A stretch of DNA of 33,509 nucleotides. Source: a virus. The DNA lies in IMG/VR virus record IMGVR_UViG_3300032304_002372, positions 1-33,509 of that record, one strand, 5' to 3'. Position numbers and translations under genes: made by a program. Below the pieces are notes generated by a model, which saw nothing but the letters and a program-made list of their open reading frames with translations, was not told the origin of the DNA and ran no database searches. Below are positions 4,556 to 31,198 of the stretch, in pieces; the stretch's first letter is position 1, and each line of letters opens with the position of its first letter.

Positions 4556-5164
4556 TTACCTAAATGGTGGACCACCCACCCACAATACTAGACTACGTCT
4601 GATGCCTCGGGTCACCGGAGTTACTCGATGCAACATCCAGCTTGGAAAGAACCAGGCACGACCACGTCGCTGTTCTACTGTCCTTGATTCTGAATTATCA
4701 ATCAATACCTGCAGCTCACCACCTTCAAATTCACTAGGATCACTCAACAACAAGGACATGCTTAATTTTCTGGGAACCACAGTTGGATCCTTACCATTGG
4801 CATCAGCATGCCAGCTGTAATGACCAGGATCATCGGGACTATATTCATAGGTGCCAAGTTGTATAGGTTCATAACAACCAGTAAGATCGTAATGAAAAAA
4901 TTGCGCATTAACTCGAGCCACAGTATTGGTTATGATGGCCCAGTAACGATCAGTATCAGCATCTCTCTGCAACCAACCAACCTTGCTGGATCTAATCTTG
5001 GTATCCAAGGCATGATTTGATGATAATCCAACAACACCATAATCAGCTGCAGCCCATTCAGGCCTGGCCAATAATCCCTGGATATCATCTTCACTTAAAA
5101 AGTCTTCCCACCAGGCTAGATTATCTGTGTCTGGTGAGTGTCTGGGTGGTATGTTTGCAATCAT
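4556..5164 (-). CDS. Fe(II)/2-oxoglutarate dioxygenase (PiuC/prolyl-hydroxylase type)
   Basis: Double-stranded beta-helix dioxygenase, 202 aa. The iron triad is clear: H119-A-D121 (YSWHADANGK) and H179 (WMLHRVTPV). The 2OG-binding Arg is R189 or R190 (GIRRSLVLW). The EFEGGELQVL segment between them is typical of the prolyl 4-hydroxylase superfamily. The substrate is unknown; protein side chains, nucleobases and small molecules are all known for the superfamily. It starts at an ATGA overlap with the next oxygenase upstream, so they are translated together. Confidence 0.9.
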   Translation of the reverse strand: MIANIPPRHSPDTDNLAWWEDFLSEDDIQGLLARPEWAAADYGVVGLSSNHALDTKIRSSKVGWLQRDADTDRYWAIITNTVARVNAQFFHYDLTGCYEPIQLGTYEYSPDDPGHYSWHADANGKDPTVVPRKLSMSLLLSDPSEFEGGELQVLIDNSESRTVEQRRGRAWFFPSWMLHRVTPVTRGIRRSLVLWVGGPPFR

Positions 5165-5610
5165 TGATGACTCACTGGTCTATGATCCCAGGGATTGATG
5201 GATACACTGAATCTAGTGCCTGACCATTCTTCTACTCCATGATAAATGCCTGGGGAAAATACTATCATTCTATTTGTTTGAGGTGTCACAGTTTCTGTGT
5301 TGGTTAAAAATCTGCCACCAGTTAAATTTTCTATGCACGGATAATAGACTATGCTACACAGAGGTGTCTGTAGTTCGCGCATACCTTCGTCTTTATCTAC
5401 ATGCCATCCTGGTCGTGTTGTCTGATGTGCCCAACATTCAATGCCCTGCATGCTGCTTAGATCAATGACTGCACGAGCTTTCTCCAAGAGAATAGATTGC
5501 CAGTACTCAGTTGTGGTCAACCAGTGTATTGCTAATTTATCTGCTGTAAAATATTCTATACAGGCTGCGCGATCCGCGGTGTCAAGAACATCGTCAAGTA
5601 TTAGTATCAT
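5161..5610 (-). CDS. Fe(II)/2-oxoglutarate dioxygenase-like protein, 149 aa
   Basis: Short oxygenase with the full triad: H70-V-D72 (GWHVDKDEG), H124 (GIYHGVEEW) and R133 in GTRFSVSINPW. GGRF at 98-101 fits the family's core strand. At 149 aa it is near the minimal beta-helix with little N-terminal extension. It lies in a run of similar genes, overlapping the upstream one by 17 bp and the downstream one by four. It is divergent from its neighbours, so the run is not a simple recent tandem duplication. Confidence 0.85.
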   Translation of the reverse strand: MILILDDVLDTADRAACIEYFTADKLAIHWLTTTEYWQSILLEKARAVIDLSSMQGIECWAHQTTRPGWHVDKDEGMRELQTPLCSIVYYPCIENLTGGRFLTNTETVTPQTNRMIVFSPGIYHGVEEWSGTRFSVSINPWDHRPVSHQ

Positions 5611-6103
5611 AGAACATACTCAAGGTAAATCTATAGTAGGGTGCAATGTGCGACTGTGGACGTATTGTATGTGGTATTTCTCCATCAAAGACAACTATGC
5701 GTCCTGGAACATAGGGCAGGGCCTGACGTATGCTTAGATCGTCGTTGTAGAACAAAGTCTCACCATGCCAGCCATTGATTTGCCATTCAGTATTCATGTA
5801 GTATAAGATGACTCGCCAACCCTTGTGTACATGAATAAAATGTGAATCTGCAGGTGTGCTCAGATTGACCACTGATTTAACTCTCTTGAGTCCAGTCACT
5901 TCATTTAATATGCCGGCTCGTTGTAGTTCAACATCAATGCCCAGCTTGACCATATCCTCTTCAGAATAGGTTGAGTGCAAATAACTATGTCCACGCTGCT
6001 GATTGTCGTCATCCCAGCCAATGCGATAGTAGCTGTCACGAGCAAAATTCAGAGCCTCAAATCTAAATTTAAAATTTAGTGCATCATCAATGATTTTAAT
6101 CAT
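5594..6103 (-). CDS. 2OG-Fe(II) oxygenase-like beta-helix protein with HxH motif
   Basis: 169 aa. The pattern resembles phage prolyl-hydroxylase-like proteins: an HFIHVHKG segment (88-95), GETLFYNDD (114-122), PGRIVVFDG and IPHTIRPQ (H145), and R158 in YYRFTLSMF. Where the usual iron motif is HxD, this protein has H91-V-H93. Either a non-standard ligand set is used or another acid (for example E115) completes the site. It may therefore be an oxygenase with altered metal binding, or a cupin-like relative. Third in the five-gene run. Confidence 0.72.
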   Translation of the reverse strand: MIKIIDDALNFKFRFEALNFARDSYYRIGWDDDNQQRGHSYLHSTYSEEDMVKLGIDVELQRAGILNEVTGLKRVKSVVNLSTPADSHFIHVHKGWRVILYYMNTEWQINGWHGETLFYNDDLSIRQALPYVPGRIVVFDGEIPHTIRPQSHIAPYYRFTLSMFYDTNT

Positions 6104-6666
6104 TTAACTTCCATGTTATAGGTTCTGTCTCTTAGATATCGTGTATCTCCAATGCGCTTATCATTGGCCCAGTCAGCATGCTCACCGTTGGTTTTAACGA
6201 AATGCATGAATACCTGACCACTGTAGTAGCCTGGTGGTCCATCACAACCATTTCTCCAGTGTTCAATTTCACAGCCAGGGTAGATTACTGCATCTCCTTC
6301 AGCCAAATCGATGCGCTGATTACCCATGAATATAGGCCAGCTATAATGATGGCTACGACCCAACTGCAGAGTTACACTGACTTCACAACTGGGCCTGTCT
6401 TTATGAGGTACCAGTACGTCTTCATTGTGATACAGTCTAGCATAACTATAGGTTGGTGTCAAGCTTTCTCCGAAATATTTTTCAATGGTTGGCCATAGTC
6501 GTTCCTGTAGTGTCTCAAAAACGATGTCTGAGGGCATCACAGTCAGTGCATTGGGCATCTGTGCATCGGTACGACGATTGATTGCACTGTGACGCAGCAA
6601 AACATGAGTCAAGAACTGACAGAATTCAATGGGGACTAGACGTGGAATGATTTGAAGTGTGGACAT
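6100..6666 (-). CDS. Fe(II)/2-oxoglutarate dioxygenase-like protein, 188 aa
   Basis: Iron motif H88-K-D90 in LVPHKDRPSCEVSVTL, second His H136 in YPGCEIEHWRNG, and the preceding YSYARLYHNED segment are typical of a small dioxygenase family common in marine phages. The GDAVIYPG strand before the distal His is also standard. The ATG is 41 bp inside the upstream gene. The substrate is unknown. An ATAAATA string lies about 60 bp upstream inside the neighbouring gene, but I do not call it a promoter. Confidence 0.85.
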   Translation of the reverse strand: MSTLQIIPRLVPIEFCQFLTHVLLRHSAINRRTDAQMPNALTVMPSDIVFETLQERLWPTIEKYFGESLTPTYSYARLYHNEDVLVPHKDRPSCEVSVTLQLGRSHHYSWPIFMGNQRIDLAEGDAVIYPGCEIEHWRNGCDGPPGYYSGQVFMHFVKTNGEHADWANDKRIGDTRYLRDRTYNMEVK

Positions 6667-7186
6667 GTTTTAAAACCTCATCAAAGGAAAGACCTAAAAA
6701 AATTTGCAGCATGGTTCGTGTACTAGAACTATTTATCGCGGTAATTGAATGTGGTTGTCTGGTATTCAATAACCAAACATCACCAGGCCTGGCAGTAAAA
6801 CTTTCTGCCCAGGTTAAATTTTCTGGATTGACTGTAAGATACAGATTGCCATTGTCGGTAAAAGTATTCAAGGATTGGGCACTGCCTTCCCAGAAGTTAG
6901 TGGCTTCTCCGTTGACATGATCATAGATGTTAATCACCGACTGATCCTTGGTATGTACATGCGCTGGTAACGCCTGACTTTCAGTTAAATGTATGCCCTG
7001 TATATGCGGTATCAGTGCAGCTGGCAGACTCTGTTTTATTCTAGCAATCATCTTTTTAGATACAAATCTGCGGGTGAGCTGTACTTCAGCATTGCCTAGA
7101 CCATGCTGTGCCATGATGCGAGTTCTGCGCAGGATATCCTGCACCTCAACGTTCAACTTTAAATCAATTTTACTGGCATATTTCAT
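6626..7186 (-). CDS. cupin/2OG-oxygenase-like beta-helix protein, 186 aa
   Basis: The start is placed at 7186, where ATG overlaps the upstream stop as ATGA, rather than at the longer in-frame start at 7207. Visible metal-type motifs: H76-V-H78-T-K-D81 (LPAHVHTKDQS) and H146 (NTRQPHSITA), separated by beta-rich sequence with GDVWLLN before the distal His. This fits a cupin or 2OG-Fe(II) oxygenase fold, but an HxH first motif and no obvious 2OG Arg leave the chemistry open. The tail after residue 165 is His/Ser-rich and overlaps the next gene by 41 bp. Confidence 0.68.
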   Translation of the reverse strand: MKYASKIDLKLNVEVQDILRRTRIMAQHGLGNAEVQLTRRFVSKKMIARIKQSLPAALIPHIQGIHLTESQALPAHVHTKDQSVINIYDHVNGEATNFWEGSAQSLNTFTDNGNLYLTVNPENLTWAESFTARPGDVWLLNTRQPHSITAINSSSTRTMLQIFLGLSFDEVLKHVHTSNHSTSSPH

Positions 7187-7644
7187 GTAAAGATCAATCC
7201 ATAGCAATGTGATACAGCCTTCAATTCAGCGTTGGGTGTTTTAATTCGTACCTGAGTTGGACCTGTAATAGTTCGATCCTGAGTCTGTAGATCACCGCGA
7301 CAAAGAAATAATTTGGTGTTGACTGCTAACTCTGCAGTTGCACCAGTTTCAAGCTCAAATTTTTCAACATCGGGCAGATAACCACGATTGGCTTCGGGGC
7401 TATAACACCAGACTGTATAATTGTCGTGCATGCTGGCAATCACAGTACCTGATGTATGTTCCTGCTTTACCCAGGCCAGGTCGCCAGCCTCATAGACCTT
7501 GATGCCATTCTGTAGCTCAAACCCCTCAGAAGTATATAATATGTTGTTGGAAGTATCGTAGGTAACAACATTTACTGTCTCGCCTTCGTCATAGACGTTG
7601 CGCATCAGCATTAGCCCAAAGCAGGCAAACGGTGTTAGCTTCAT
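7183..7644 (-). CDS. hypothetical beta-rich protein, 153 aa
   Basis: Not recognised with confidence. The sequence alternates short beta strands throughout (for example TVNVVTYDTSNNILYTS and TQVRIKTPNAELKAVS) and could be another cupin-like sandwich, but no HxH/E metal motif is visible. The first 15 residues are hydrophobic with a Cys but do not make a convincing signal peptide. It overlaps both neighbours by four bases, sitting between the fibre genes and the oxygenase run. A structural or fibre-associated role is possible from position only. Confidence 0.75.
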   Translation of the reverse strand: MKLTPFACFGLMLMRNVYDEGETVNVVTYDTSNNILYTSEGFELQNGIKVYEAGDLAWVKQEHTSGTVIASMHDNYTVWCYSPEANRGYLPDVEKFELETGATAELAVNTKLFLCRGDLQTQDRTITGPTQVRIKTPNAELKAVSHCYGLIFT

Positions 7645-7946
7645 ACTACTTCCTGCAGCTGTACTAGATCGGCTACATGCAGGCTGGGCAAATTTTCTAC
7701 TTCGTGTATGGGATACGCATGGTCCTGACCAATCAGAGCCTGCATGGTCTGTTTAAATTCAACCTTGCGAATTTCTTCGATGCCACGTTGTGCTATGCGA
7801 CGTTTAATTTCTTCGACATCGGTTACACCTGGGCATTCCTGCAAGAGCCCAAAGACTACGCCGTCGACAACAATGTCGGCTGCTGCATAGTTAACTGTGA
7901 AGGCAAAATTATAGGGATCGTAGCCCATGATCTGAAATTTAATCAT
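7641..7946 (-). CDS. hypothetical protein, 101 aa, fibre-linked
   Basis: Small mixed alpha/beta protein, unrecognised. Its N-terminus (MIKFQIMGYDPYNFAFTVNY) is beta-like and the middle is a charged helix (DVEEIKRRIAQRGIEEIRK). Its start overlaps the stop of the tail-fibre gene by four bases, so it is translated directly after the fibre. Such genes are often fibre chaperones or accessory adhesins, but no motif supports a specific call. Confidence 0.75.
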   Translation of the reverse strand: MIKFQIMGYDPYNFAFTVNYAAADIVVDGVVFGLLQECPGVTDVEEIKRRIAQRGIEEIRKVEFKQTMQALIGQDHAYPIHEVENLPSLHVADLVQLQEVV

Positions 7947-10153
7947 CCTACAGTACCTGATCTAGTACCTGTATTAACCCAGGTCACCAACGGACTACCA
8001 ACGACATAGTGTCCAGGTCCGCCGCCTGGTTGGGCAGCACCAGTAGGTGATGCCAATGATGTATTACCAGTAGTACCTAGAGCACCACCATTGGCACCAG
8101 CTGTCCCAGTAGCATTGGTAGCAGCTACTCGCGCACCACCAACACCAGCTGTAAAGCTGGCCTGAGCTGGTGGTGTTCCCAGTGTAAAGGTAGCGCCTGG
8201 GGACGGTACAGGCATTCCAATGACGGCATAATCAAAGTAACCTGAATTTGGATCTGCACCAGCACCACCACCGCCTGCGCCTCCGCCGGCTGATGAAACT
8301 CCTCCCTTGGGCGTATTTGATGGTCCTGAACTACCTCCGCCACCGCCACCGCCACCACCGCCAATGACGCCTATGTTGTCAATGGTCACTGGTCTGAAGA
8401 CGCCCAGAGCATCGCCACCACGACCACCAGGCCTGCCTACAGGGCTCACGGGATTACCTAGGGCTGGCACAGTTACGGGCGTTCCAGCCTGACCACCTCG
8501 GCCACTTGCACCAACAATGCTGCCATTGTTGACAATTCTAACTGTATCACCAGAATTAAATCTGCTTGGTACTGATACTGCATAACTGGTTGTCAGGGTT
8601 TCGCTGGTTGTATAGATGTTGTAGGATCCAGTTAGTGTAGGTGGTGAGAAATGAATATAACCGGCGCTCGTAGTTTCCACATACTGTTGATTGACTGCGG
8701 CTGCCCCAGTACCCACACTGGTAGTTATCATTGGTCCCCAGGCAAAGATCGTCTGGTCGCGCTGCATCCCAGAATTGCTAGCCATTTGACTCCCTCCGTT
8801 GGTATAAAGCAAGAATCTTTGTCCACCCGTGTTGTTGACATTGCAGACCAGTCTTTGCCAACTAGCAGTCAGTATTATACTACTTTGAGTTTGAGCTGTA
8901 CCCGCACTAATTCTTAGACCTATAGAAGTACCCCATCCTTTGAGCCAGATACTTACGCAATAGGCTGTTGTGGCATTTAACAGAGTCTGTGTCTGTTGAA
9001 AATAATCATTGGTTGACACATTATTCATCCATAATGCTATAACTCCAGTGGTTGTACCATTGGGTGATATTATACCATAGGTAACTGGAAATGATGTATC
9101 AACTCTGTTAAACGGTCCCCATTGCCAAAATGCACCATCAGACATGTTTTGAGAATTGTTGACCAGATTGCCCCGAGTATAGGCACCAGAGCCCGAAGCC
9201 AAAGATACACTAAAACTATCAGTAATCGAACTACCAACACTACCAACAATGGCACCTGTACCAACGTTAAGAACAACATCGGTCAGGCCTGTGGTGTATC
9301 CTGAACGCAGCGCAATATTGTAGAGATTTAGATTGCTGGTATATGTAGTGGCTGGTACAGTAATGGTAATTGTTGTTCGTCCACCAGGTACTCCTGATGC
9401 TGGCCCAGTTATTCCATAGAATTGACTCATGGAAATGGCACCCTGTGCTGCTACAGTGGTATTAACAAAAGCACCAGTATTACTAATAGCAAATGGTTCA
9501 GGAACAATTTGATCAGTAGTTTGAACATAGGCCCGCAGAGTCGAACCCGTGGTAATCTGATAACCCCAGGCAAACACTGCTTCACCGACTGCTACATTGG
9601 AGCCAGCAACACCATTGGGCTGAATAAATATGTTCCTGTTTGAACTTGCGCTGCCAGTAAATGTTGCACTCAGCCGTTGCCAGTTTGCAGTCAGGGTCAA
9701 TGAAGTCTGGCCAACTCTGGCGCCATTATCAAAATTACCAATGGCACAAAGACGGCCCACCGAAGTACCATCGCCTCTTAGGTACACGCTGTGTGTATAT
9801 TGAACACCGGCCTTCAATGTTTTAACATCATCTTGTTGGATATAGCTACCACCACCTAGCCCAGTAACCAATATTTTTTCAGCTGTTGTGTTACCATCGG
9901 GAGCCACAATCTGATCAGCTGATACACTTGCATTGAATGCTGTCCAAGGTGCAATATTAAACCGTTCACTCCAGGTTATAATATTACCACCACCAATAGA
10001 TACCGATGTTGTTACAGCAACTGTACCGATTACCAGGTTTGCACTATTGTACACGTCAGCCATGGACAATGCGTATCGTTGAAATCCATAAGGACCCTGA
10101 TACTCATTGGCAAGATCTAGGAACGAAATTGCTCCACTAACCGGAGTAGTCAT
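7943..10153 (-). CDS. tail fibre / adhesin with duplicated lectin-like modules and Gly-rich tip
   Basis: 736-aa structural protein, predicted receptor-binding fibre. An N-terminal attachment-like segment (MTTPVSGAISFLDLANEY) is followed by two copies of one module, at about 60-215 and 328-495. Both carry P(D/N)GTT-type loops, a (Y)xxSxxL(R/K)GxGTS strand, LTAxWQRL and FAWGxxITT. Residues 545-720 are a Gly-rich tip with a ten-Gly run (598-607), recalling the glycine-rich sandwich of T-even gp38 adhesins. The C-terminus (TWVNTGTRSGTVG) resembles host-range tips of other marine phage fibres. The S74 chaperone is the next gene upstream. GGAG precedes the ATG. Confidence 0.85.
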   Translation of the reverse strand: MTTPVSGAISFLDLANEYQGPYGFQRYALSMADVYNSANLVIGTVAVTTSVSIGGGNIITWSERFNIAPWTAFNASVSADQIVAPDGNTTAEKILVTGLGGGSYIQQDDVKTLKAGVQYTHSVYLRGDGTSVGRLCAIGNFDNGARVGQTSLTLTANWQRLSATFTGSASSNRNIFIQPNGVAGSNVAVGEAVFAWGYQITTGSTLRAYVQTTDQIVPEPFAISNTGAFVNTTVAAQGAISMSQFYGITGPASGVPGGRTTITITVPATTYTSNLNLYNIALRSGYTTGLTDVVLNVGTGAIVGSVGSSITDSFSVSLASGSGAYTRGNLVNNSQNMSDGAFWQWGPFNRVDTSFPVTYGIISPNGTTTGVIALWMNNVSTNDYFQQTQTLLNATTAYCVSIWLKGWGTSIGLRISAGTAQTQSSIILTASWQRLVCNVNNTGGQRFLLYTNGGSQMASNSGMQRDQTIFAWGPMITTSVGTGAAAVNQQYVETTSAGYIHFSPPTLTGSYNIYTTSETLTTSYAVSVPSRFNSGDTVRIVNNGSIVGASGRGGQAGTPVTVPALGNPVSPVGRPGGRGGDALGVFRPVTIDNIGVIGGGGGGGGGGSSGPSNTPKGGVSSAGGGAGGGGAGADPNSGYFDYAVIGMPVPSPGATFTLGTPPAQASFTAGVGGARVAATNATGTAGANGGALGTTGNTSLASPTGAAQPGGGPGHYVVGSPLVTWVNTGTRSGTVG

Positions 10154-10154
10154 G

Positions 10155-10712
10155 CTATTCTCCAGCCTGTGTTTTTAGACGCTGAACTTCGGACTGCAGT
10201 TCTTTGATGGCTTCAACCAGCAAGGGAATCAATCTTTCATAGCGTATGGTTAGATAGTTGGGATCAGCTGGTGCAGGTGCAACAGCCTCGGGCATGATGG
10301 CCTGCACTTCCTGTGCGCTCAGGCCGATCTCACGTATGCTAGGATCATAGCCCAGAGCCTCGGCAGTCTTGTTGGCATGGTAATAGAAAGCAGTTAGCTT
10401 GCCAATCTTGGACAGGGGATTTTCAATTTCACCCACATGAACTTTGAGTCGCTCATCGGAATAAAAGGCAGTAATGTTTCCTGCAGCAACAATGCTGCCA
10501 CCGATGTTGGAGTTGCCTCCGGTACGTATACTACCGGTATGTATGATATCACCGGCATCGCCAATTTCTTCGGTGCCCACGCTCAGGGGCGCCATGATGA
10601 CCTGGGGTTCGTTGGTAGTGGTAGACGCACGTCGTGTCGTGCGATTGACAAACAAACCACGAGTACTATCATACTGTTGAATAAATGGGTTTCTGGTTGC
10701 GGTATTAGGCAC
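10155..10712 (-). CDS. stand-alone S74 intramolecular-chaperone protein
   Basis: 185 aa. Residues 85-180 are a peptidase S74 (endosialidase-type) chaperone domain: SDERLK puts the putative catalytic Ser85 and Lys90 five residues apart, as in known self-cleaving domains, and it ends in the usual coiled coil (YERLIPLLVEAIKELQSEVQ). Residues 1-80 are a short beta-structured region with T/G repeats (GSIRTGGNSNIGGSIVAAG). The domain normally trimerises a beta-helical fibre and then cleaves itself off. Here it is on its own small protein, upstream of and probably serving the fibre at 7943, or capping a short fibre. The start is GTG with a good AGGAG. Confidence 0.9.
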   Translation of the reverse strand: MPNTATRNPFIQQYDSTRGLFVNRTTRRASTTTNEPQVIMAPLSVGTEEIGDAGDIIHTGSIRTGGNSNIGGSIVAAGNITAFYSDERLKVHVGEIENPLSKIGKLTAFYYHANKTAEALGYDPSIREIGLSAQEVQAIMPEAVAPAPADPNYLTIRYERLIPLLVEAIKELQSEVQRLKTQAGE

Positions 10713-10727
10713 GGCGATCTCCTGATT

Positions 10728-11876
10728 TTATTGGTTATTTATCAGGTATTTTATGCGTTGATCCAGTTCTATCCAATATGTTTCATTGGCTATCTGAGGT
10801 ACAACGAATGATAAACTGTTGGTGTAGAATTGATTGGTCAACAGTCCAGCCTGTTCCAGGATCCGTGGATCAATGTTTCCATGGAATACAAGTTCTCTGA
10901 TCAGACCCTGACCACGATGTTCTTTGATTGCAGTTCCTAGACTGCGAATCCAGGCATCGGTTCGGCCAACCAGGTCATTGAATCTGGTCTGATCAACCAG
11001 GTCCAGTACTTTATTGACCAGACTCAAGCCTGGTACCCAGGGCTGCCAGGTATGACCATGAACCCAACGACACTGCTGCAGAGCCGGAGCCAATCGTTGA
11101 TGGGCCAGGGCGCAACTCAGAGGAGCATGACCGCCAGTCAGTGATTTGCCCAGAGCCACAATGTCGGGTTCTATGCCCAGACTGGCATGTGTGCAGGTAG
11201 CCGCGGCTTTACCAAAGCCACCAGCCACATCGTCAATCATCAACAGTATGCCACGTTCAGTACAGAGTTGACGCAGATTCTGCCACCAACTCTGGCTCCA
11301 GGGTTTTAATCCGCGTAGCCAGGGTATGCTTTCCATAATGATGGTGCCTACACGTTGCCCTGCAGTTGAATCTAAAGTGGTCAGCAGATTGTTCCAGGCC
11401 TCAGCTTCAGAGCTGGCATCCACTACGACAACCTGAGTGTTCCAGGATCGTTCACGCCGCAGCGATTTAGATAACCAGGTACAGCCATGATAGTTCGGAG
11501 TAAAACTTAAAATTCTGGGACGGGGGTTGGCTTGCTGCTGTTGCCATTGCCAGGCTATTTCCAGACCAGCTTCAACAGCATCCGATCCTGATACAGTCCA
11601 GAGTATGCTGTGCATGCCTGTGAGAGCAGTTAGTCGTTGATTGACCTGATCCAGTATGTCGCAGGTTTCACCCTGACGTCCACGCACGAATGATACACCA
11701 GACATACCTGTGGCCAGAGCCTGATTTAAATCAGCATTGTTGTAGCCCCAGACATAGGCACTGTTACCTAACCAGAGATCCAGATATTGTCCTTGTGTGG
11801 TATTGACCCAGTAGCCCCGATTAGATACTACGGTACGTGCAATTTCTCCATGATTATGATCAGCTAGTTCTATCAT
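10728..11876 (-). CDS. PLP-dependent class III aminotransferase, 382 aa
   Basis: Fold-type I class III (omega/ornithine-type) aminotransferase. Motifs: SGSDAVEAGLEIA (96-108; usual SGSEAVEAALK), YHG (129-131) that stacks on the PLP ring, D215 in MIDDVAGGFGK (usual DEVQTGFGR) and Schiff-base lysine K244 in VALGKSLTGGH. It is somewhat shorter than the usual 400-450 aa. The amino donor and acceptor cannot be deduced. It is the last gene of the amidinotransferase/AdoMet decarboxylase cassette, four bases from the decarboxylase gene, so a polyamine, guanidino compound or amino-ketone substrate is a reasonable inference. Confidence 0.9.
   Translation of the reverse strand: MIELADHNHGEIARTVVSNRGYWVNTTQGQYLDLWLGNSAYVWGYNNADLNQALATGMSGVSFVRGRQGETCDILDQVNQRLTALTGMHSILWTVSGSDAVEAGLEIAWQWQQQQANPRPRILSFTPNYHGCTWLSKSLRRERSWNTQVVVVDASSEAEAWNNLLTTLDSTAGQRVGTIIMESIPWLRGLKPWSQSWWQNLRQLCTERGILLMIDDVAGGFGKAAATCTHASLGIEPDIVALGKSLTGGHAPLSCALAHQRLAPALQQCRWVHGHTWQPWVPGLSLVNKVLDLVDQTRFNDLVGRTDAWIRSLGTAIKEHRGQGLIRELVFHGNIDPRILEQAGLLTNQFYTNSLSFVVPQIANETYWIELDQRIKYLINNQ
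10736..10744 (-). promoter_or_regulatory. possible late promoter (TGATAAATA) before the fibre genes
   Basis: Minus-strand ATAAATA (10736-10742) lies 24 bp upstream of the GTG start of the S74 gene, at the 3' end of the aminotransferase gene. It is identical over nine bases to the element at 1625-1633. It fits late expression of structural genes but is one base short of the T4 octamer. Confidence 0.35.
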
Positions 11877-11880
11877 GCTA

Positions 11881-12231
11881 TCATGCCTGTCTAGTTAAAA
11901 ATGTCACCTTGATGCTAGAGCACTGAAAATACTGCGTCACAGTATCCTTGACTGTCTGTACATCAAATTCCTTGCAGGAGAATACATCAAAGTATGCTGT
12001 ATTATTGGCCTCAACAAAGTGTGCGCAGATATTGCTGGTAGTGATCAGCTGCATTAGACTGTAACCACAGTTGGGTTCACCAGGCAGACAATATTCAATT
12101 ATGGGTTCGCCTACAGCCACCATGTCAATGCGATGTACCAGGTCTTTGACAAACTTATATATCTGTGATCTGTCCCGAATATTCCTGCAGCCTGCACAAT
12201 CTAATATCAGATGATATCCCCAGTATTTCAT
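11881..12231 (-). CDS. speH: S-adenosylmethionine decarboxylase proenzyme (SpeH-like), 116 aa
   Basis: Pyruvoyl-type AdoMet decarboxylase, making decarboxylated AdoMet, the aminopropyl donor for spermidine synthesis. The proenzyme cleaves itself before the Ser that becomes pyruvoyl. The three key residues are in place with the spacing of bacterial SpeH: S66 (ITTSN), H71 (CAHF) and C86 (FDVFSC), 5 and 20 residues after the Ser, as in S63/H68/C83 of the Thermotoga enzyme. It begins MKYWGYHLILD, like other small class 1B enzymes of about 120 aa. Its ATG overlaps the amidinotransferase stop. No spermidine synthase is in the window; the host's could be used. Confidence 0.88.
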   Translation of the reverse strand: MKYWGYHLILDCAGCRNIRDRSQIYKFVKDLVHRIDMVAVGEPIIEYCLPGEPNCGYSLMQLITTSNICAHFVEANNTAYFDVFSCKEFDVQTVKDTVTQYFQCSSIKVTFLTRQA

Positions 12232-13262
12232 ATAACCTTTCTTCGATTACCAGAACGTCGAACGTCCAGGGTAAGACAATGTATACCAGCTTCCCAGAAC
12301 ATGCCATGCCGTTGTTCACATACATGACAATTTATACCCAATTTTTCCAGCAGTTTAAATACCTGGGGCTGCACTGCTGAGAAGATAATGTTCTGAGAAT
12401 CTACAACCAGTACATTGGCCTCAAATGCTACAGGCTGAGCATAGCCCCGCCATTCAGTCAACCAACGATCCAACCAGGGCTCAGTAAATCTATCACCAGC
12501 AGTTGCCGCAGCAAAAGCAGCATAATCAAAGGCTGTATATTTACCTGACAAATCTATGATGCGTTTATTCTTTAACACTGCAGGCAACCAGTCCTGATTT
12601 AAACATATTACGGTCTCATCGTCTGTCATGTAAAATCCATGATCAATGTGTCCAAAGTTTCTGGCCAATGTGCCTGGATTGCGAAAAATTCTTGCATCAA
12701 TGTTGCGTCGCATCCATTCCAGTCCCTGCTGAGTACCTGGTCCCTTGCTGTTGGTAATCAGTGCATCACCGCATTTAAACATGGTGGCAGTATGCCAGAG
12801 CAGACGATCCTTCAACTCTTTGCCATAGATGCGTCCTCCTGCAGTATACCAGCGATCATTAACATCAAAGTTTTTAATCATGGGCGGTGGCATGCTCAAC
12901 CAGTTGTAACCCTGCTTGAATAGGTCGGCAAACACATCATAGTAGGCATAGCCGTCGGCATATCGATCGGGCATGCTGGTATAGGTCTGATACACAGTAG
13001 AACCATAGACCAAATACTGATCTCGGGGCACTATGGGTTGTGTGGGTAACCGAACTTTGAAGTCGGTAAAGTCAATTTCGTTGAGGTTGGTTGCCCTGGG
13101 CCTCTGTACCTTGACACCCAGCCTGGTCAGATAGTCGGCTAGATTGTCCAGATCGGCCTTGGTCTCTTCAAGTATAAGATCCAGAGAAGCTGATAGATTG
13201 GATTGAATGCTGCAGTTACCAACAATGACTTCTTCCAGCGGGTCCCAGTTAGTAAAAATCAT
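12228..13262 (-). CDS. amidinotransferase (glycine/inosamine amidinotransferase family)
   Basis: 344 aa, alpha/beta-propeller guanidino-group-modifying enzyme. The catalytic His lies in GHIDHGF (204-210) and the nucleophilic Cys in GIHCLTLDVRR (C329), as in human GATM and StrB. The N-terminal WDPLEEVIVGN and PRDQYLVYG segments are also typical. It transfers an amidino group from arginine to an amine. The acceptor is unknown. Related genes occur in marine phages. It is coupled to the SpeH gene (4-bp overlap) and overlaps the CPFAR-motif gene by 14 bp, making a four-gene unit. Confidence 0.92.
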   Translation of the reverse strand: MIFTNWDPLEEVIVGNCSIQSNLSASLDLILEETKADLDNLADYLTRLGVKVQRPRATNLNEIDFTDFKVRLPTQPIVPRDQYLVYGSTVYQTYTSMPDRYADGYAYYDVFADLFKQGYNWLSMPPPMIKNFDVNDRWYTAGGRIYGKELKDRLLWHTATMFKCGDALITNSKGPGTQQGLEWMRRNIDARIFRNPGTLARNFGHIDHGFYMTDDETVICLNQDWLPAVLKNKRIIDLSGKYTAFDYAAFAAATAGDRFTEPWLDRWLTEWRGYAQPVAFEANVLVVDSQNIIFSAVQPQVFKLLEKLGINCHVCEQRHGMFWEAGIHCLTLDVRRSGNRRKVI

Positions 13263-13677
13263 GCCCAGTAATTTCCTTCAAATATTCTGGCGACCAGTAC
13301 TGATAGTAGTTGGTCTTACTCAATACTTTTCTGGCGCTTAGTAATTTGTCCCGGGGTTGACAAAGTATGAGATTGTATACACCATTGTTGGTCTGTACAT
13401 CGCCGATCAGTGTTTGTCTATCTTTTGGATCGGGCAGAAAAATATAGTTGGCATGTTGTTCGTTCAACTGTCTGCAGTAGTCAAACAACTGATCCTGAGT
13501 CTGATCTGCTGACAGAACAAAAACAATTATTTCAAACTCTCGATTAGGTACAACAATGTCGTTGGTTTCTATGATTTCATAGACTGCCTTCCTGGCAAAA
13601 GGACAGACAGCCATACCACCCAAGGATGCCTGTGGTAAGCTCAGATGTTGAATCCAGGCATCAACATGTTCCTGCAT
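13249..13677 (-). CDS. CPFAR-motif protein, 142 aa
   Basis: I know of no function. The N-terminus has a motif SLGGMAVCPFARKA (residues 18-31) seen in uncharacterised marine phage and bacterial proteins. The rest looks like an alpha/beta fold with strand segments FEIIVFVLSA and YNLILCQPRD. The single conserved-looking Cys25 next to Pro could be a nucleophile or ligand. First gene of the amidinotransferase cassette, starting exactly at the stop of the 62-aa gene upstream, so likely to act in the same pathway. Confidence 0.8.
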   Translation of the reverse strand: MQEHVDAWIQHLSLPQASLGGMAVCPFARKAVYEIIETNDIVVPNREFEIIVFVLSADQTQDQLFDYCRQLNEQHANYIFLPDPKDRQTLIGDVQTNNGVYNLILCQPRDKLLSARKVLSKTNYYQYWSPEYLKEITGHDFY

Positions 13678-13865
13678 TACTTTTTATCCAGCTCCAAAGC
13701 ATCAATGATAGATTCTTCGGTACTGAGTTGGTCCTGATATTCGTTGTTAGCAGTACCAGTATTGTCGGGTCGGTGCGGGTTGCTGCCAAAAATTACGTCC
13801 CAGTTATTCTTGTAGACTGTCATATCCACGCTAAAAGGTCTGGGTTTGCTTCCTTTGCCGCTCAT
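13677..13865 (-). CDS. conserved small protein (MSGKGSKPRPF family), 62 aa
   Basis: The opening MSGKGSKPRPFSVDMTVYKN and the following NNWDVIFGSN are characteristic of a small protein widespread in marine T4-like phages. Function unknown. The N-terminus is basic and the C-terminus acidic (STEESIIDALELDKK), so an adaptor or nucleic-acid-contacting role is possible. Overlaps both neighbours by one to four bases. Confidence 0.8.
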   Translation of the reverse strand: MSGKGSKPRPFSVDMTVYKNNWDVIFGSNPHRPDNTGTANNEYQDQLSTEESIIDALELDKK

Positions 13866-17281: not shown

Positions 17282-17310
17282 ATTTTATAGATTCCAGCAT
17301 TGTTTGTCAA
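17282..17310 (-). promoter_or_regulatory. possible sigma70 promoter before the gp62/regA group
   Basis: TTGACA (17305-17310), 17 bp, TAAAAT (17282-17287). It lies across the end of the hydroxylase-like gene and would add transcription of the 63-aa gene, gp62 and regA independent of gp45/gp44. Confidence 0.5.
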
Positions 17311-17872
17311 TCTCAACCACTGCAGTAATTCTCCAATCCGACCCCTGGTTGTGCATGTAATGCTGGGTATGTATACCATTAAAGGCACGAAACTCGCCAG
17401 TGCCCCAGATCTTTTCTTCTCCACCAAATACCAGACATTGTTTTTCTGGTTCAGGTATATGTATACCAAAGCTTACTGTATAACCTTCTACAGGCTGATC
17501 AGGCTGACCCATGGATTCAGATATCCAAGCCCAGACATTGCTATCGTCATGCACTGGTAACTGCTTGCCTGGGCGAATAAAATTGATGCACATATCAATC
17601 ATACCAGGACACTTGAACAATTGATCCAGACTACGTTCCCAACCATGAGCAAACTGCTCCTGTACTGTCCTGGCATCAACCATGGGCAGAGCCATGAAAC
17701 CTAGCGCATTCTCGGCTGGCATAACATAACGAGATTGTGCATCTATTCCAATTTCATCGATGTTATATTTTAATTTCCAGTCTGCATAATCATCTAGTAA
17801 ACACTGTTGCAGTAATTCTAGTTGATCATAGTACTGATATTGTCTTGGATCACCCAGCCACATTCCATTCAC
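17285..17872 (-). CDS. aspartyl/asparaginyl beta-hydroxylase-like Fe(II)/2OG protein A
   Basis: 195 aa. Motifs of the Asp/Asn beta-hydroxylase superfamily: FIRPGKQLPVHDDS with H108-D-D110, the strand GYTVSFGIHIP, FGGEEKIWGTGEFRAFNG, distal His (H168 or H171) in HTQHYMHN and R181 in DWRITAVVEID. Homologous along its length to the next gene upstream, so they are old tandem paralogues. The start is probably GTG at 17872 or ATG at 17863; neither has a clear ribosome-binding site, and the gene overlaps the paralogue by up to 23 bp. The substrate is unknown. Confidence 0.82.
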   Translation of the reverse strand: MNGMWLGDPRQYQYYDQLELLQQCLLDDYADWKLKYNIDEIGIDAQSRYVMPAENALGFMALPMVDARTVQEQFAHGWERSLDQLFKCPGMIDMCINFIRPGKQLPVHDDSNVWAWISESMGQPDQPVEGYTVSFGIHIPEPEKQCLVFGGEEKIWGTGEFRAFNGIHTQHYMHNQGSDWRITAVVEIDKQCWNL

Positions 17873-18416
17873 TACTTTCTATGTCAAAGACTGCAGTCAC
17901 ACGCCAGCTATCAGCATTGTTTAAAACTCGGTGCTCATGCAGACCATCAAAGGCATAGATCTCCTGATTGACATGCGCACGCTGATCAGCACCAAAAGCA
18001 ATGTACTGCACATCTGCATTGGGCGGCATTAGCATATCAATACCTATGGCTATGGTATAGCCAGTTGTTCCTGGCCAGCGGTTGTTGATGCGTTCCCAGT
18101 TAGTGTCTGTATGTGGAGGTAACTGGCCGCCGGGTCTGACATAGTTAATTACACCCTGTTTAAGACCAGGAAATTGTAGAATCAATTGTCTGGTTTCGGT
18201 AAACCAGGGATCTGGATTTAGTAAACCATTGAAGTAAACAAGATAGGCCCACCAGTCAGCATCATATTCGGTAAGCTCAGGATATTCTTGAGCTGTAACA
18301 TCTATGCAATAGCTGGTTGGATCTAAATCTTTTACCTGCTGATAATCCCGGGTCAGGGCACCAACCAGATCCTGCAGTAAATTATAGTGCTTGTACAGGG
18401 TTGGGTCTATGAACAT
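17850..18416 (-). CDS. aspartyl/asparaginyl beta-hydroxylase-like Fe(II)/2OG protein B
   Basis: 188 aa paralogue of the gene downstream, sharing VRPGGQLPPHTDTN (H102-T-D104), GYTIAIGIDM, FGADQ, IYAFDGLHEHRVLNN (H160/H162) and WRVTAVFDIE (R172). All three catalytic elements of a 2OG-dependent hydroxylase are intact. It begins at a TAATG junction with gp44, so it is translated in the replication operon. Not part of the T4 operon and has no known role in replication. Confidence 0.85.
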   Translation of the reverse strand: MFIDPTLYKHYNLLQDLVGALTRDYQQVKDLDPTSYCIDVTAQEYPELTEYDADWWAYLVYFNGLLNPDPWFTETRQLILQFPGLKQGVINYVRPGGQLPPHTDTNWERINNRWPGTTGYTIAIGIDMLMPPNADVQYIAFGADQRAHVNQEIYAFDGLHEHRVLNNADSWRVTAVFDIESSEWNVAG

Positions 18417-24484: not shown

Positions 24485-24961
24485 TTAGCGACTCCACCAG
24501 TCCTCCCACGGAAACACCACCCATTCGTGTTCTTTCTCAGGATCTATATACTGACCCACGAAATCGGCTTCTGCGTGGCTGCTATGCTTTTGCAATAATA
24601 CTGCATATCGAACCGTGGTCTGATCCAGCAGCAGCATACTTTTAGTGGCTTCTTTGATGCTGTTTACTGTCTTGCCGCTGTCATTGATGTCATCGACAAT
24701 CAAAACGGAACCACGACGCTTGGCTTCTTTGAAGGCCCATTCCAGACTAACATAGTCAACCACATCCATGTCTCTATGGCTGACCTGTACTGGGTAATGA
24801 GGGCAGTCATAGTAATGGCTAAGCATTACTCCTAACTGTAGTCCGCCACGATTGGGCGAAATGATGGTTGCAGGTTTAAAGTCATGTATGGCTGCTTCAC
24901 GTGTAATATTCAATAACCAGTTTGTAATATCAGACTGGGTTACATAATTATAGTGTATCAA
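24485..24961 (-). CDS. type I phosphoribosyltransferase, 158 aa, TTG start
   Basis: PRPP-binding motif VLIVDDINDSGKT (86-98) and the PPi-loop-like SPNRGGLQLG (35-44) identify a purine-type phosphoribosyltransferase (hypoxanthine/xanthine/guanine PRT class). The start is TTG at 24961: it has a near-perfect GGAGGAA five bases upstream, overlaps the previous stop as TTGA, and no in-frame ATG exists before residue 46. The substrate base is unknown. It is coupled to a glutaminase-like gene, so the two may act in one salvage or base-modifying step. Confidence 0.88.
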   Translation of the reverse strand: MIHYNYVTQSDITNWLLNITREAAIHDFKPATIISPNRGGLQLGVMLSHYYDCPHYPVQVSHRDMDVVDYVSLEWAFKEAKRRGSVLIVDDINDSGKTVNSIKEATKSMLLLDQTTVRYAVLLQKHSSHAEADFVGQYIDPEKEHEWVVFPWEDWWSR

Positions 24962-25596
24962 GTTTCCTCCATTATATGATCAACAAATTCCAAAAGTAAT
25001 TGATTGTGATATCCGTCATGCCAATGCTTCTTTAAATACTTGGGTCTGTCATACCAGTAGGGCCGACTCTCAGGATGACATCCAATTAGGCCTATTCTGT
25101 TCTGAACAATGGCCATGGGATAGTCTGTAGCATAACTGGCATACACATCCTGCTCTCCACCAACAAAGGTACAGCCGTCATAGAAGTACATGTTCATGGC
25201 CTCGCCTTGCCAGATTACTGGCATGGCTTTAGGATGCGGACGACGAGTGTCTGATCCTGGTTGAGTAATGTATTGTTCGACTCTGGTGTCTTTTAGTATG
25301 TCAAAATAGTATTCATCGGCCCAATAGGCACCCATGCAGATACCAATGTAGCGACCGCCACGTGCAATGTATTGTTGTATGCGTTCTTTGTGTACCTTGG
25401 CCACAGAATAAAATCGATCAGAATCGCCAATGCCACCAGGGAACAGAACAGCATCCACATCGTCGAAGAAGCTTTCTTCCATTTCATTCTTGCCAAACAA
25501 CTTGAACAGATACTTGGATTCCAGAGATTCAATCACACCATTGCTGCACTGAGCATCGCAACTGGGTTCATGCATGAATAGGGCTATACGTTTCAT
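24958..25596 (-). CDS. class I glutamine amidotransferase-like protein (BPL_N type)
   Basis: 212 aa. DJ-1/GATase-I-like fold with FPGGIGDSDRFYS (52-64), nucleophile elbow GRYIGICMGAYWAD with C87, and H174/E176 in GCHPESRPYWY. The whole protein resembles the biotin-protein-ligase N-terminal domain family found in marine phages and bacteria. It may supply ammonia to, or hydrolyse an amide of, the product of the coupled phosphoribosyltransferase. Substrate unproven. ATGA overlaps on both sides. Confidence 0.85.
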   Translation of the reverse strand: MKRIALFMHEPSCDAQCSNGVIESLESKYLFKLFGKNEMEESFFDDVDAVLFPGGIGDSDRFYSVAKVHKERIQQYIARGGRYIGICMGAYWADEYYFDILKDTRVEQYITQPGSDTRRPHPKAMPVIWQGEAMNMYFYDGCTFVGGEQDVYASYATDYPMAIVQNRIGLIGCHPESRPYWYDRPKYLKKHWHDGYHNQLLLEFVDHIMEET

Positions 25597-28771: not shown

Positions 28772-29278
28772 CTAGTCTAATAAATTTTCGTTCCATTCTC
28801 TGTGACCTTCTCTGAAGGCCATGTTTGACTGCGTTTCACGAACCTCAACTCTGTAACACCAGAGTCGGTCTGCCTCACCTGGTCCCCAGTAGTCGGGTAT
28901 ATAAACTCCATTGACATACTTGTAGAGCATGTCAGCCAAGCCTTCACAGCCTAGTCTAGGTAAGATGGTTAGCTTGGCCATCTTCTTTTCCTGCAACAAT
29001 CTATAGGTTGCCATTTCAGGGTCGTCTTCGGCTACCAATAAAGTATGATCAAACTGGTCTTCTAAAACAGATTTCAATTCTTTTAGACCACCGTAGTCGG
29101 CTGCCCAATTACGCACATCTAAGTCATTGGTACCAAAATAGAACTTCATTGAAAAGGCATAGCCATGAATTAGATTACAATGACTGTCGGCACGCCATTG
29201 ACGATAGGCAACTGGAAATGCGTTATGATATTCTTTGGTGCTGGTATACTTGTAGGCTACGGCTTTGGTTTCTGCCAT
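28772..29278 (-). CDS. QueD/6-pyruvoyl-tetrahydropterin synthase-like T-fold protein
   Basis: 168 aa. The pattern HNAFPVAYRQW, CNLIHGYAFSMKFYF (C34, H38), then GGLKELKSVLEDQFDHTLLV (D77-H78) and the C-terminal CYRVEVRET (E about 151) follows QueD/PTPS in order. Two of the three usual zinc histidines are altered: the A-H of the first motif is A-Y (24-25), and HGH is H-G-Y (38-40). C34, D77-H78 and the final Glu are kept. It may use other ligands, bind a different pterin or deazapurine, or be non-catalytic. It lies downstream of a DpdA-like gene. Promoter at 29311-29339. Confidence 0.8.
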   Translation of the reverse strand: MAETKAVAYKYTSTKEYHNAFPVAYRQWRADSHCNLIHGYAFSMKFYFGTNDLDVRNWAADYGGLKELKSVLEDQFDHTLLVAEDDPEMATYRLLQEKKMAKLTILPRLGCEGLADMLYKYVNGVYIPDYWGPGEADRLWCYRVEVRETQSNMAFREGHREWNENLLD

Positions 29279-29772
29279 GCGTGCTCCTCAAATTCGTTAT
29301 CAAAGTCTTTAGTATATTGTATATCAACTAATTTGTCAATGGCCTTTGGCGAATGCTTTTTAGTCTGGCGAACAAATTCAGCGTCAAATACACGCTTGCG
29401 CAATTCAGTACTTGAAAAACTATGACTACGTTTATTATAATGAATAGGTATGCCCAACTCTTTGCCAGTAAAATCAATATCACGATACTCTTCACCAACA
29501 AATCTAACATCGATATTCTGGCTCTGCAGTATGTCCATCAATTCTTTTTCTGTGGCATAGGGTATGATATTATCAACATATACACAGGCTTCTAATTGAA
29601 CCCAGCGTTCATATAAACTCTGTATGGGTTTATTCTTTGTAGGTCGATCTATGGTAGGGTCGGACTGAATGCCAACAATTAAATAGTCACAGTTCTTTTT
29701 TGCTTCTTCAAGCATACAGATATGACCTGCATGAAACAGGTCAAAGGTTGAGCAGGTAAAACCAGTGGTCAT
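29257..29772 (-). CDS. cytidylyltransferase-family nucleotidyltransferase, 171 aa
   Basis: Glycerol-3-phosphate cytidylyltransferase-like fold: TFDLFHAGHICMLEEAK with the H14-x-G-H17 signature, VGIQSDPTIDRPTK, and the SSTELRKR C-terminal motif (usual ISTT/SSTxIxxR). It links CTP (or ATP) to a phosphorylated small molecule such as glycerol phosphate or a sugar phosphate. Coupled by ATGA to the glycosyltransferase, so a nucleotide-activated donor for that enzyme is a sensible inference. Length is normal (TagD about 130 aa) with a longer C-terminal tail. Confidence 0.87.
   Translation of the reverse strand: MTTGFTCSTFDLFHAGHICMLEEAKKNCDYLIVGIQSDPTIDRPTKNKPIQSLYERWVQLEACVYVDNIIPYATEKELMDILQSQNIDVRFVGEEYRDIDFTGKELGIPIHYNKRSHSFSSTELRKRVFDAEFVRQTKKHSPKAIDKLVDIQYTKDFDNEFEEHAWQKPKP
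29311..29339 (-). promoter_or_regulatory. sigma70-like promoter for the QueD-like/gp47/gp46 group
   Basis: TTGACA (29334-29339), 17 bp, TATACT (29311-29316), within the 3' part of the cytidylyltransferase gene, 33 bp before the QueD-like ATG. Would drive the QueD-like gene, DUF465, gp47 and gp46. Confidence 0.65.
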
Positions 29773-30827: not shown

Positions 30828-31198
30828 ATTGTTGGATGCGCCCAGTAATGTAGAATTGCTCCATTTTCACCATCTTCAGATACTTCAACTTCCATGTCAC
30901 GACCAGGATACTTGTCCTTGATTGTTGCAATCAAAGACTCGGCCAACATTTCACAGCTCTGATAATCTAGCTCGAGAGTGGAATTAGAATACAGATTTTC
31001 GAGCCATCGTTTAAATTGGATGAACTCAATGTCCCTGTCATTATGCTGCACGGAAATGCGCACGCTGAAATGGAAGATATGGCGATGAGGATGAGCAAGA
31101 AACGAGACATCGGCTAGTTTAGGATCTGTGGCTGCTGCAGGATATTTATGTATTCCTTCCTTTTGAAAGGTAACTTTAATCCATCTACGTATCATCAT
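30824..31198 (-). CDS. second T-fold-like (PTPS/QueD-like) small protein, 124 aa
   Basis: I call this family tentatively. EGIHKYPAA, FLAHPHRHIFHFSVRISV (H36, H38, H40), then LELDYQSCEMLAESLI (C82) and VEVSEDGENGA follow the layout of 6-pyruvoyl-tetrahydropterin synthases: a His-rich first motif, a Cys/Glu helix and a final VxVxE strand. Its His-rich segment complements the His-poor QueD-like protein at 28772. The start uses the ATG that overlaps the DpdA-like stop (ATGA). It could instead be an unrelated beta-barrel. Confidence 0.5.
   Translation of the reverse strand: MMIRRWIKVTFQKEGIHKYPAAATDPKLADVSFLAHPHRHIFHFSVRISVQHNDRDIEFIQFKRWLENLYSNSTLELDYQSCEMLAESLIATIKDKYPGRDMEVEVSEDGENGAILHYWAHPTI

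What the first reader, a model, noticed from the sequence alone, without database searches (positions are those of the whole stretch)
10728..13677. Four-gene coupled cassette: CPFAR protein, amidinotransferase, AdoMet decarboxylase, class III aminotransferase
Seen: the genes overlap or abut (14 bp, ATGA, 4-bp gap) and all have intact catalytic residues. Known: each enzyme class handles amines (amidino transfer from Arg, dcAdoMet for aminopropyl transfer, omega-transamination). Inference: together they could make or destroy a guanidino-polyamine. A modified polyamine for DNA packing, a base hypermodification, or a host-directed metabolite are all possible. AdoMet decarboxylases and amidinotransferases are known singly in marine phages; I know of no pathway for this set.
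Basis: partly seen in the sequence, partly recalled or inferred. Interest (0 to 1): 0.8.

Follow-up and report, generated by a model that had tools for sequence, protein, structure and literature searches.

The report
Recurrent viral aminotransferase–amidinotransferase gene cassette
A T4-like marine phage carries four interlocked enzyme genes that recur together, in shuffled order, in many other viral contigs; they most likely act as a tailoring unit that puts a guanidine group on a still unknown small molecule or sugar, rather than the simple polyamine pathway first proposed.

Summary
The four genes are real, overlap as described and are homologous to the stated classes. Their linkage is not an accident. 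In 47 non-redundant viral loci found through the amidinotransferase alone, CPFAR was within 10 kb in 24 (abutting or overlapping in 21), the aminotransferase in 28, a SpeD homologue in 12, all four in 8. Two three-gene operons recur, SpeD–CPFAR–AT and AmT–CPFAR–AT; the window is their union. AT/CPFAR and AT/AmT distances correlate (r 0.53 and 0.67).

The amidinotransferase does not have an intact triad: the acid of StrB1 (Asp179) and AGAT is His157 here and His in all 46 viral sequences aligned. SpeD keeps Ser66/His71/Cys86, but its substrate is open, and no spermidine synthase was found in 30 viral records that carry AT.

CPFAR has no solved fold relative. It is remotely similar to DUF6875, reported to be heme proteins that oxidise tryptophan, and in one contig it is fused to a flavin halogenase.

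Best reading: an amine-then-guanidine tailoring relay (AmT, then AT) with oxidation and decarboxylation helpers, part of larger phage biosynthetic clusters. The product is unknown; a polyamine is possible but not favoured.

The parts
13249..13677 (-). CPFAR protein, 142 aa; small protein without a solved fold relative, remotely DUF6875-like, probably oxidative
   Evidence: phrog_10325 6.5e-22; >572 viral relatives; confident model pLDDT 94.7 with no PDB fold match; invariant W8, C25, Q107, Y124; hhalign chain to DUF6875 through cyanobacterial homologues
12228..13262 (-). amidinotransferase-like pentein protein (AT), 344 aa, with triad Asp replaced by His157
   Evidence: StrB1 2.6e-21; fold match to HsvA, SxtG, AGAT, StrB1; His157, His205, Asp207, Cys329 invariant in 46 aligned viral sequences
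11881..12231 (-). SpeD (class 1b AdoMet decarboxylase-like, pyruvoyl) protein, 116 aa; substrate undetermined
   Evidence: PF02675 2.8e-17; Ser66, His71, Cys86 align with T. maritima S63, H68, C83
10728..11876 (-). class III PLP aminotransferase (AmT), 382 aa
   Evidence: PF00202 7.2e-40; Lys244 and Asp215 invariant in the 30 sequences aligned
13677..13865 (-). 62-aa ORF overlapping the start of CPFAR; same transcription run, role unknown
   Evidence: ORF and TAATG junction
10155..10712 (-). tail-fibre protein with S74 chaperone domain, 15 bp after AmT
   Evidence: PF13884 5.8e-12; phage long-tail-fibre PHROGs
7943..10153 (-). 736-aa glycine-rich fibre-like protein in the same run
   Evidence: weak tail-fibre PHROGs
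4556..6103 (-). three tandem 2OG-Fe(II) oxygenase-like genes (4556-5164, 5161-5610, 5594-6103) further down the same run
   Evidence: PF13640 1.1e-14, 1.7e-5, 1.8e-4; the last two under Pfam's cut-off

Best explanation
The four genes are one realisation of a recurrent viral tailoring module. Core step (inferred): AmT makes a primary amine from a carbonyl by transamination, and AT moves an amidino group from host arginine onto that amine, giving a guanidino group plus ornithine. This is the logic of the aminotransferase/StrB1 pair in streptomycin and of the PLP-enzyme/SxtG pair in saxitoxin (established knowledge). CPFAR, the usual neighbour of AT, is most likely an oxidase or oxygenase (possibly heme-bound) acting on the same substrate. 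SpeD supplies a decarboxylated building block (an amine, or decarboxylated AdoMet). The module is a subset of larger phage clusters with radical SAM enzymes, a flavin halogenase, 2OG oxygenases and methyltransferases; the product is probably a guanidino-bearing small molecule, perhaps a sugar. Shown: linkage, homology, residue conservation. Inferred: order of steps, acceptor, CPFAR chemistry, product.
For: Co-occurrence in an AT-first sample: 47 clusters; CPFAR 24, AmT 28, SpeD 12. Overlapping operons SpeD-CPFAR-AT (L048, L056, L058, L060, L071) and AmT-CPFAR-AT (L101; L066 with a gap). Correlated divergence AT/AmT r=0.67 and AT/CPFAR r=0.53, no permutation of 2000 as high. AmTs beside AT belong to several divergent subfamilies (18-43% identity to the window's; motifs DDIAMCGGK, DDVMGGMGK, DDIFMGGGK, DEVLTGMGR), which suggests repeated recruitment. 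AT is closest in sequence to StrB1 and in fold to HsvA and SxtG. In L080/L075 AT sits among sugar-nucleotide genes: in L080 a DegT/StrS-family fragment, a deoxysugar-type C-methyltransferase, a UDP-glucose dehydrogenase and an epimerase. CPFAR is fused to a flavin halogenase (PF04820 6e-90) in L001. CPFAR reaches DUF6875 through cyanobacterial homologues (99.4% then 92.5% probability); DUF6875 proteins are described as heme-binding and tryptophan-oxidising (PMC13307353).
Against: The triad acid of AT is His in the whole viral family, so amidino transfer itself is not assured; it could be a hydrolase or a different transferase. Direct CPFAR-DUF6875 similarity is only a short N-terminal match (33% probability; five of 54 members reach Pfam E<0.1, best 3.5e-4). 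CPFAR often occurs without AT (cyanophages next to gp25/gp6; 49 of the loci mapped). SpeD distances do not track AT, and four of the eight all-four loci have a dead or different-type SpeD. AmT is often on the opposite strand. No product, no substrate and no expression evidence.
Confidence: 0.42

Rival explanations
1. Post-translational decoration of a virion protein: the cassette, with the 2OG oxygenases further down the same gene run, modifies residues or glycans of the tail fibres encoded between them.
For: Near-gapless co-directional run from the cassette through two fibre genes to tandem 2OG oxygenases; a fibre gene 37% identical to the window's lies downstream of CPFAR-AT-AmT in L055; 2OG-like genes follow AT directly in L058; CPFAR is next to baseplate genes in cyanophages.
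Against: Most AT loci with radical SAM, SGNH or sugar genes show no fibre next to AT in the parts read; AT relatives act on small amines; fibre regions are common insertion sites for accessory genes.
Confidence: 0.2
2. Guanidino-polyamine synthesis: SpeD gives decarboxylated AdoMet for aminopropylation by the host, and AT amidinates the polyamine; the product helps DNA packing or acts on the host.
For: The closest fold match of AT is HsvA, titled a polyamine amidinotransferase; the nearest phage SpeD, phiN3 (37%), restores spermidine to an E. coli speD mutant (PMC9992855).
Against: No spermidine synthase in 30 AT-bearing records; the proline said to be constant in true AdoMetDCs (PMC10407285) appears to be missing, although phiN3 lacks it too; a linked SpeD is dead; partners in relatives are not polyamine enzymes; it gives CPFAR and AmT no clear role.
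Confidence: 0.17
3. DNA base hypermodification, for example amidination of a 7-deazaguanine amine such as preQ1.
For: The window has a PTPS/QueD-like gene 85-87% identical to genes beside AT in L073, L076 and L080; GTP cyclohydrolase I and a QueE-like radical SAM gene lie in the L080 cluster.
Against: PTPS also occurs in CPFAR-only phages (4 of 13, against 11 of 26 AT records); no TGT-family hit in 40 records and only a sub-threshold one in the window; in the window the gene lies 15 kb from the cassette.
Confidence: 0.08
4. Unrelated auxiliary genes gathered at an insertion hotspot, with no shared pathway.
For: CPFAR occurs alone; SpeD types are mixed; the genes lie beside fibre genes.
Against: Repeated overlapping adjacency in different orders and correlated divergence.
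Confidence: 0.07

Closest known systems
AGAT/StrB1/HsvA/SxtG amidinotransferases
   Same: Fold (TM about 0.72), guanidinium-binding Asp, catalytic His and Cys, GxHCxTLDxxR motif
   Different: Triad Asp replaced by an invariant His; viral clade not found in bacterial or archaeal genomes by the two peptide patterns scanned; sits next to CPFAR
Campylobacter phage CP220/CPt10 interchangeable module (five radical SAM genes plus a putative glycine amidinotransferase; PMC2853527)
   Same: Phage-borne amidinotransferase in a radical SAM-rich metabolic cluster, as in many relatives here
   Different: CP220 AT is 25% identical and keeps the Asp; no CPFAR hit outside cyanophages among phage records; no radical SAM gene of the three families searched in this 33.5-kb window
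Phage SpeD enzymes (AdoMetDC, or pyruvoyl ODC/ADC; PMC9992855, PMC10407285)
   Same: Pyruvoyl Ser, His, Cys
   Different: Groups (50-66% identity) with other AT-linked SpeDs with TTSNxxAHF and no Pro; substrate untested; no SpeE seen
DUF6875 heme-binding tryptophan-oxidising proteins (ZigI, PMC13307353)
   Same: N-terminal W..F....HP.LG...CPF motif through cyanobacterial intermediates
   Different: CPFAR is shorter and below the Pfam cut-off; no His is invariant
Viral creatine-pathway genes (GATM/GAMT, PMC11360552)
   Same: Marine viral amidinotransferase genes are probably annotated there as GATM
   Different: Neighbours are not those of creatine synthesis; whether the sequences are the same clade was not tested

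Membership tests
AGAT/StrB1-type amidinotransferase | pentein fold | tested here: met
AGAT/StrB1-type amidinotransferase | Cys-His-Asp triad | tested here: not met
   Cys329 and His205 present; Asp replaced by His157 in 46 of 46
AGAT/StrB1-type amidinotransferase | guanidinium-binding Asp pair (PRD and HxD) | tested here: met
   Asp81 and Asp207 invariant
AGAT/StrB1-type amidinotransferase | Arg-dependent amidino transfer | not testable with these tools
   needs enzyme assay
Class 1b AdoMet decarboxylase | pyruvoyl Ser plus catalytic His and Cys | tested here: met
Class 1b AdoMet decarboxylase | NCBIfam equivalog cut-off (SAM_DCase_Bsu) | tested here: not met
   30.6 against 75.65 bits; Pfam AdoMet_dc cut-off is met
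Class 1b AdoMet decarboxylase | AdoMet-specific proline | tested here: inconclusive
   position read by alignment to T. maritima, absent here; functional phiN3 also lacks it
Polyamine (spermidine) pathway | aminopropyltransferase partner | tested here: inconclusive
   PF01564 in 0 of 30 AT-bearing records, but many are fragments and the window's own record was not in that search
Class III aminotransferase | PLP lysine and Asp | tested here: met
   Lys244 and Asp215, 30 of 30; no equivalog cut-off reached
DUF6875 heme protein | Pfam gathering score | tested here: not met
   13.4 against 24.5 bits
DUF6875 heme protein | heme binding | not testable with these tools
   spectroscopy needed
CP220/CPt10 radical SAM-AT module | radical SAM genes beside AT | tested here: not met
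   none of three radical SAM HMMs hits the window; met in many relatives

The most novel reading that the evidence does not exclude
A widespread virus-specific biosynthetic system: viruses carry multi-enzyme clusters (aminotransferase, His-triad amidinotransferase, CPFAR heme-type oxidase, pyruvoyl decarboxylase, radical SAM enzymes, halogenase) that make a dedicated guanidino natural product during infection, with an amidinotransferase of altered catalytic mechanism and a new oxidase family.
Probability: 0.25. Interest if true: 0.9.

Novelty: new variant of a known kind. Interest (0 to 1): 0.62.

Why it matters
Phage auxiliary genes are usually read one at a time as host-metabolism boosters. 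Here the unit of inheritance is a set of tailoring enzymes: the amidinotransferase has more than 200 viral relatives and was not found in cellular genomes by the scan made, and it carries a triad substitution that I know of in no other pentein enzyme. If the product can be found, it would show what viral halogenases, radical SAM enzymes and 'GATM' genes in marine phages are for, a question open since the CP220 and cyanophage genomes. It also warns against annotating viral amidinotransferases as creatine synthesis and viral SpeD as spermidine synthesis by name alone.

Tried and rejected
PDB and viral fold search for CPFAR: no solved relative, only viral proteins without a known function. PADLOC: no defence match. 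T4 late-promoter scan: matches at chance level. Genome scan for AT in bacteria and archaea: 54 pattern matches, none a relative; only two peptide patterns were used, so divergent cellular relatives may be missed. CPFAR genome scan: one cyanobacterial MAG contig with housekeeping genes and no AT in reach. TGT family in 40 records: none, although a 538-aa L075 protein has a TGT-like GDSGGFQIAKG motif that Pfam does not match. Creatine reading considered; GAMT was not searched.

Full report
OBSERVATION. The window is a whole IMG/VR virus record of 33,509 bases from a T4-like phage: clamp loader, clamp, SbcC/D-like nuclease subunits and an Hsp20-like protein. On the minus strand four ORFs run 13677->10728 with a 14-bp overlap, an ATGA junction and a 4-bp gap. 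AmT and SpeD pass Pfam cut-offs; AT has no Pfam hit but matches StrB1, HsvA, SxtG and AGAT, and its model (pLDDT 90.9) matches the same enzymes best. The run is longer than four genes: two small ORFs overlap its start, and after AmT come two fibre-like genes and tandem 2OG-oxygenase-like genes.

CATALYTIC RESIDUES. In the phmmer alignment the StrB1 triad acid Asp179 (FDAAN) aligns with His157 (WHTAT). That this Asp is the triad acid is established knowledge of StrB1 and AGAT. His157 is invariant in all 46 viral sequences aligned, as are Asp81, His205, Asp207 and Cys329; the Campylobacter phage CP220 protein, 25% identical, keeps Asp. From memory, the equivalent AGAT mutant is inactive, so the viral proteins either use another acid/base or do another reaction. 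Conservation of everything else argues for an active enzyme. AmT keeps Lys244 and Asp215 in 30 of 30. SpeD keeps Ser66, His71 and Cys86.

LINKAGE. Starting from AT only, 207 relatives were confirmed in viral contigs and none in genome contigs. The best 80 collapse to 47 clusters at 95% identity. Within about 10 kb, CPFAR is found in 24 (21 abutting or overlapping AT by my reading of the table), AmT in 28, SpeD in 12, radical SAM families in 19-26, a halogenase in 8. Eight have all four, but in L034 SpeD lacks Ser/His/Cys, and in L036, L039 and L049 it is of the HTVC201P type; L043, L047, L054 and L056 have the window's SpeD type. SpeD-CPFAR-AT and AmT-CPFAR-AT are recurrent operons. Distance matrices correlate for AT/CPFAR and AT/AmT (0 of 2000 permutations as high), not for AT/SpeD; that set of loci includes some found through CPFAR, and shared phage ancestry can contribute to the correlation. 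So AT, CPFAR and AmT form the core; SpeD is a frequent but looser member.

CPFAR. More than 572 viral relatives exist; in cultured Synechococcus phages the gene stands alone before gp25/gp6. Its model is confident but has no solved counterpart. Homologues in 8 of 386 genomes of the cyanobacterial phylum bridge to DUF6875 by profile comparison (99.4%, then 92.5%; direct match weak, 33%). Cys25, Gln107 and Tyr124 are kept in all phage and cyanobacterial members compared. A 2026 paper says that DUF6875 proteins bind heme and oxidise tryptophan (PMC13307353). In L001 CPFAR is the C-terminal part of a protein whose N-terminal part is a flavin halogenase. An oxidative role is therefore the best guess, not a result.

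CONTEXT IN RELATIVES. AT loci carry B12-type and other radical SAM genes, methyltransferases, aspartyl-hydroxylase-like and TauD oxygenases, or a sugar-nucleotide cluster with GTP cyclohydrolase I and PTPS. No spermidine synthase was found in 30 records. PTPS occurs in 11 of 26 AT-bearing and 4 of 13 CPFAR-only records (my split), so the DNA-modification reading gets little support.

MECHANISM. The pairing of an aminotransferase with a StrB1-like protein is the known way to make a guanidine from a carbonyl (streptomycin; established knowledge). I take AmT->AT as the core and CPFAR and SpeD as modifiers of the same or a linked substrate. The order of steps, the substrate and the product are inferred.

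NOVELTY. Single phage SpeD and amidinotransferase genes are known (PMC9992855, PMC11360552), and CP220/CPt10 have radical SAM+AT clusters described as an interchangeable module of probably non-essential metabolic genes (PMC2853527). In the papers searched I found no description of the CPFAR-AT-SpeD-AmT set, the His-triad clade or the CPFAR-halogenase fusion; subscription papers are mostly not held. I rate it a new variant of a known kind.

Noticed in passing
window 28772-29278, 29257-29772, 31195-32445: PTPS/QueD-like gene (PF01242 6e-14), nucleotidyltransferase-like gene and a phrog_10773 protein with a sub-threshold TGT match (0.019): possible partial 7-deazaguanine pathway in this phage.
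   Followed up: partly
window 24485-25596: Adjacent phosphoribosyltransferase-like and glutamine-amidotransferase-like genes of unclear purpose.
   Followed up: no
window 17285-18416: Two adjacent genes (the first weakly Asp_Arg_Hydrox) whose homologues (67-68% and 42%) lie just after AT in L058 but about 4 kb from the cassette here.
   Followed up: partly
window 6100-7207: Two further ORFs with HxD-like motifs in the run of 2OG oxygenase-like genes, no Pfam match.
   Followed up: no
L001 2250-2606: SpeD homologue that has lost pyruvoyl Ser, His and Cys yet is kept between other cluster genes: possible non-enzymatic role.
   Followed up: partly
L192 7935-8462: Solitary CPFAR gene, 51% identical to the window's, on a cyanobacterial MAG contig with aroA- and gcvT-like genes; possible transfer between phage and host.
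   Followed up: partly
L003, L007 (family of about 170-200 aa): Up to seven copies per locus of a small HxD...H protein family near AT, without Pfam match in the member scanned; probably divergent 2OG oxygenases.
   Followed up: partly
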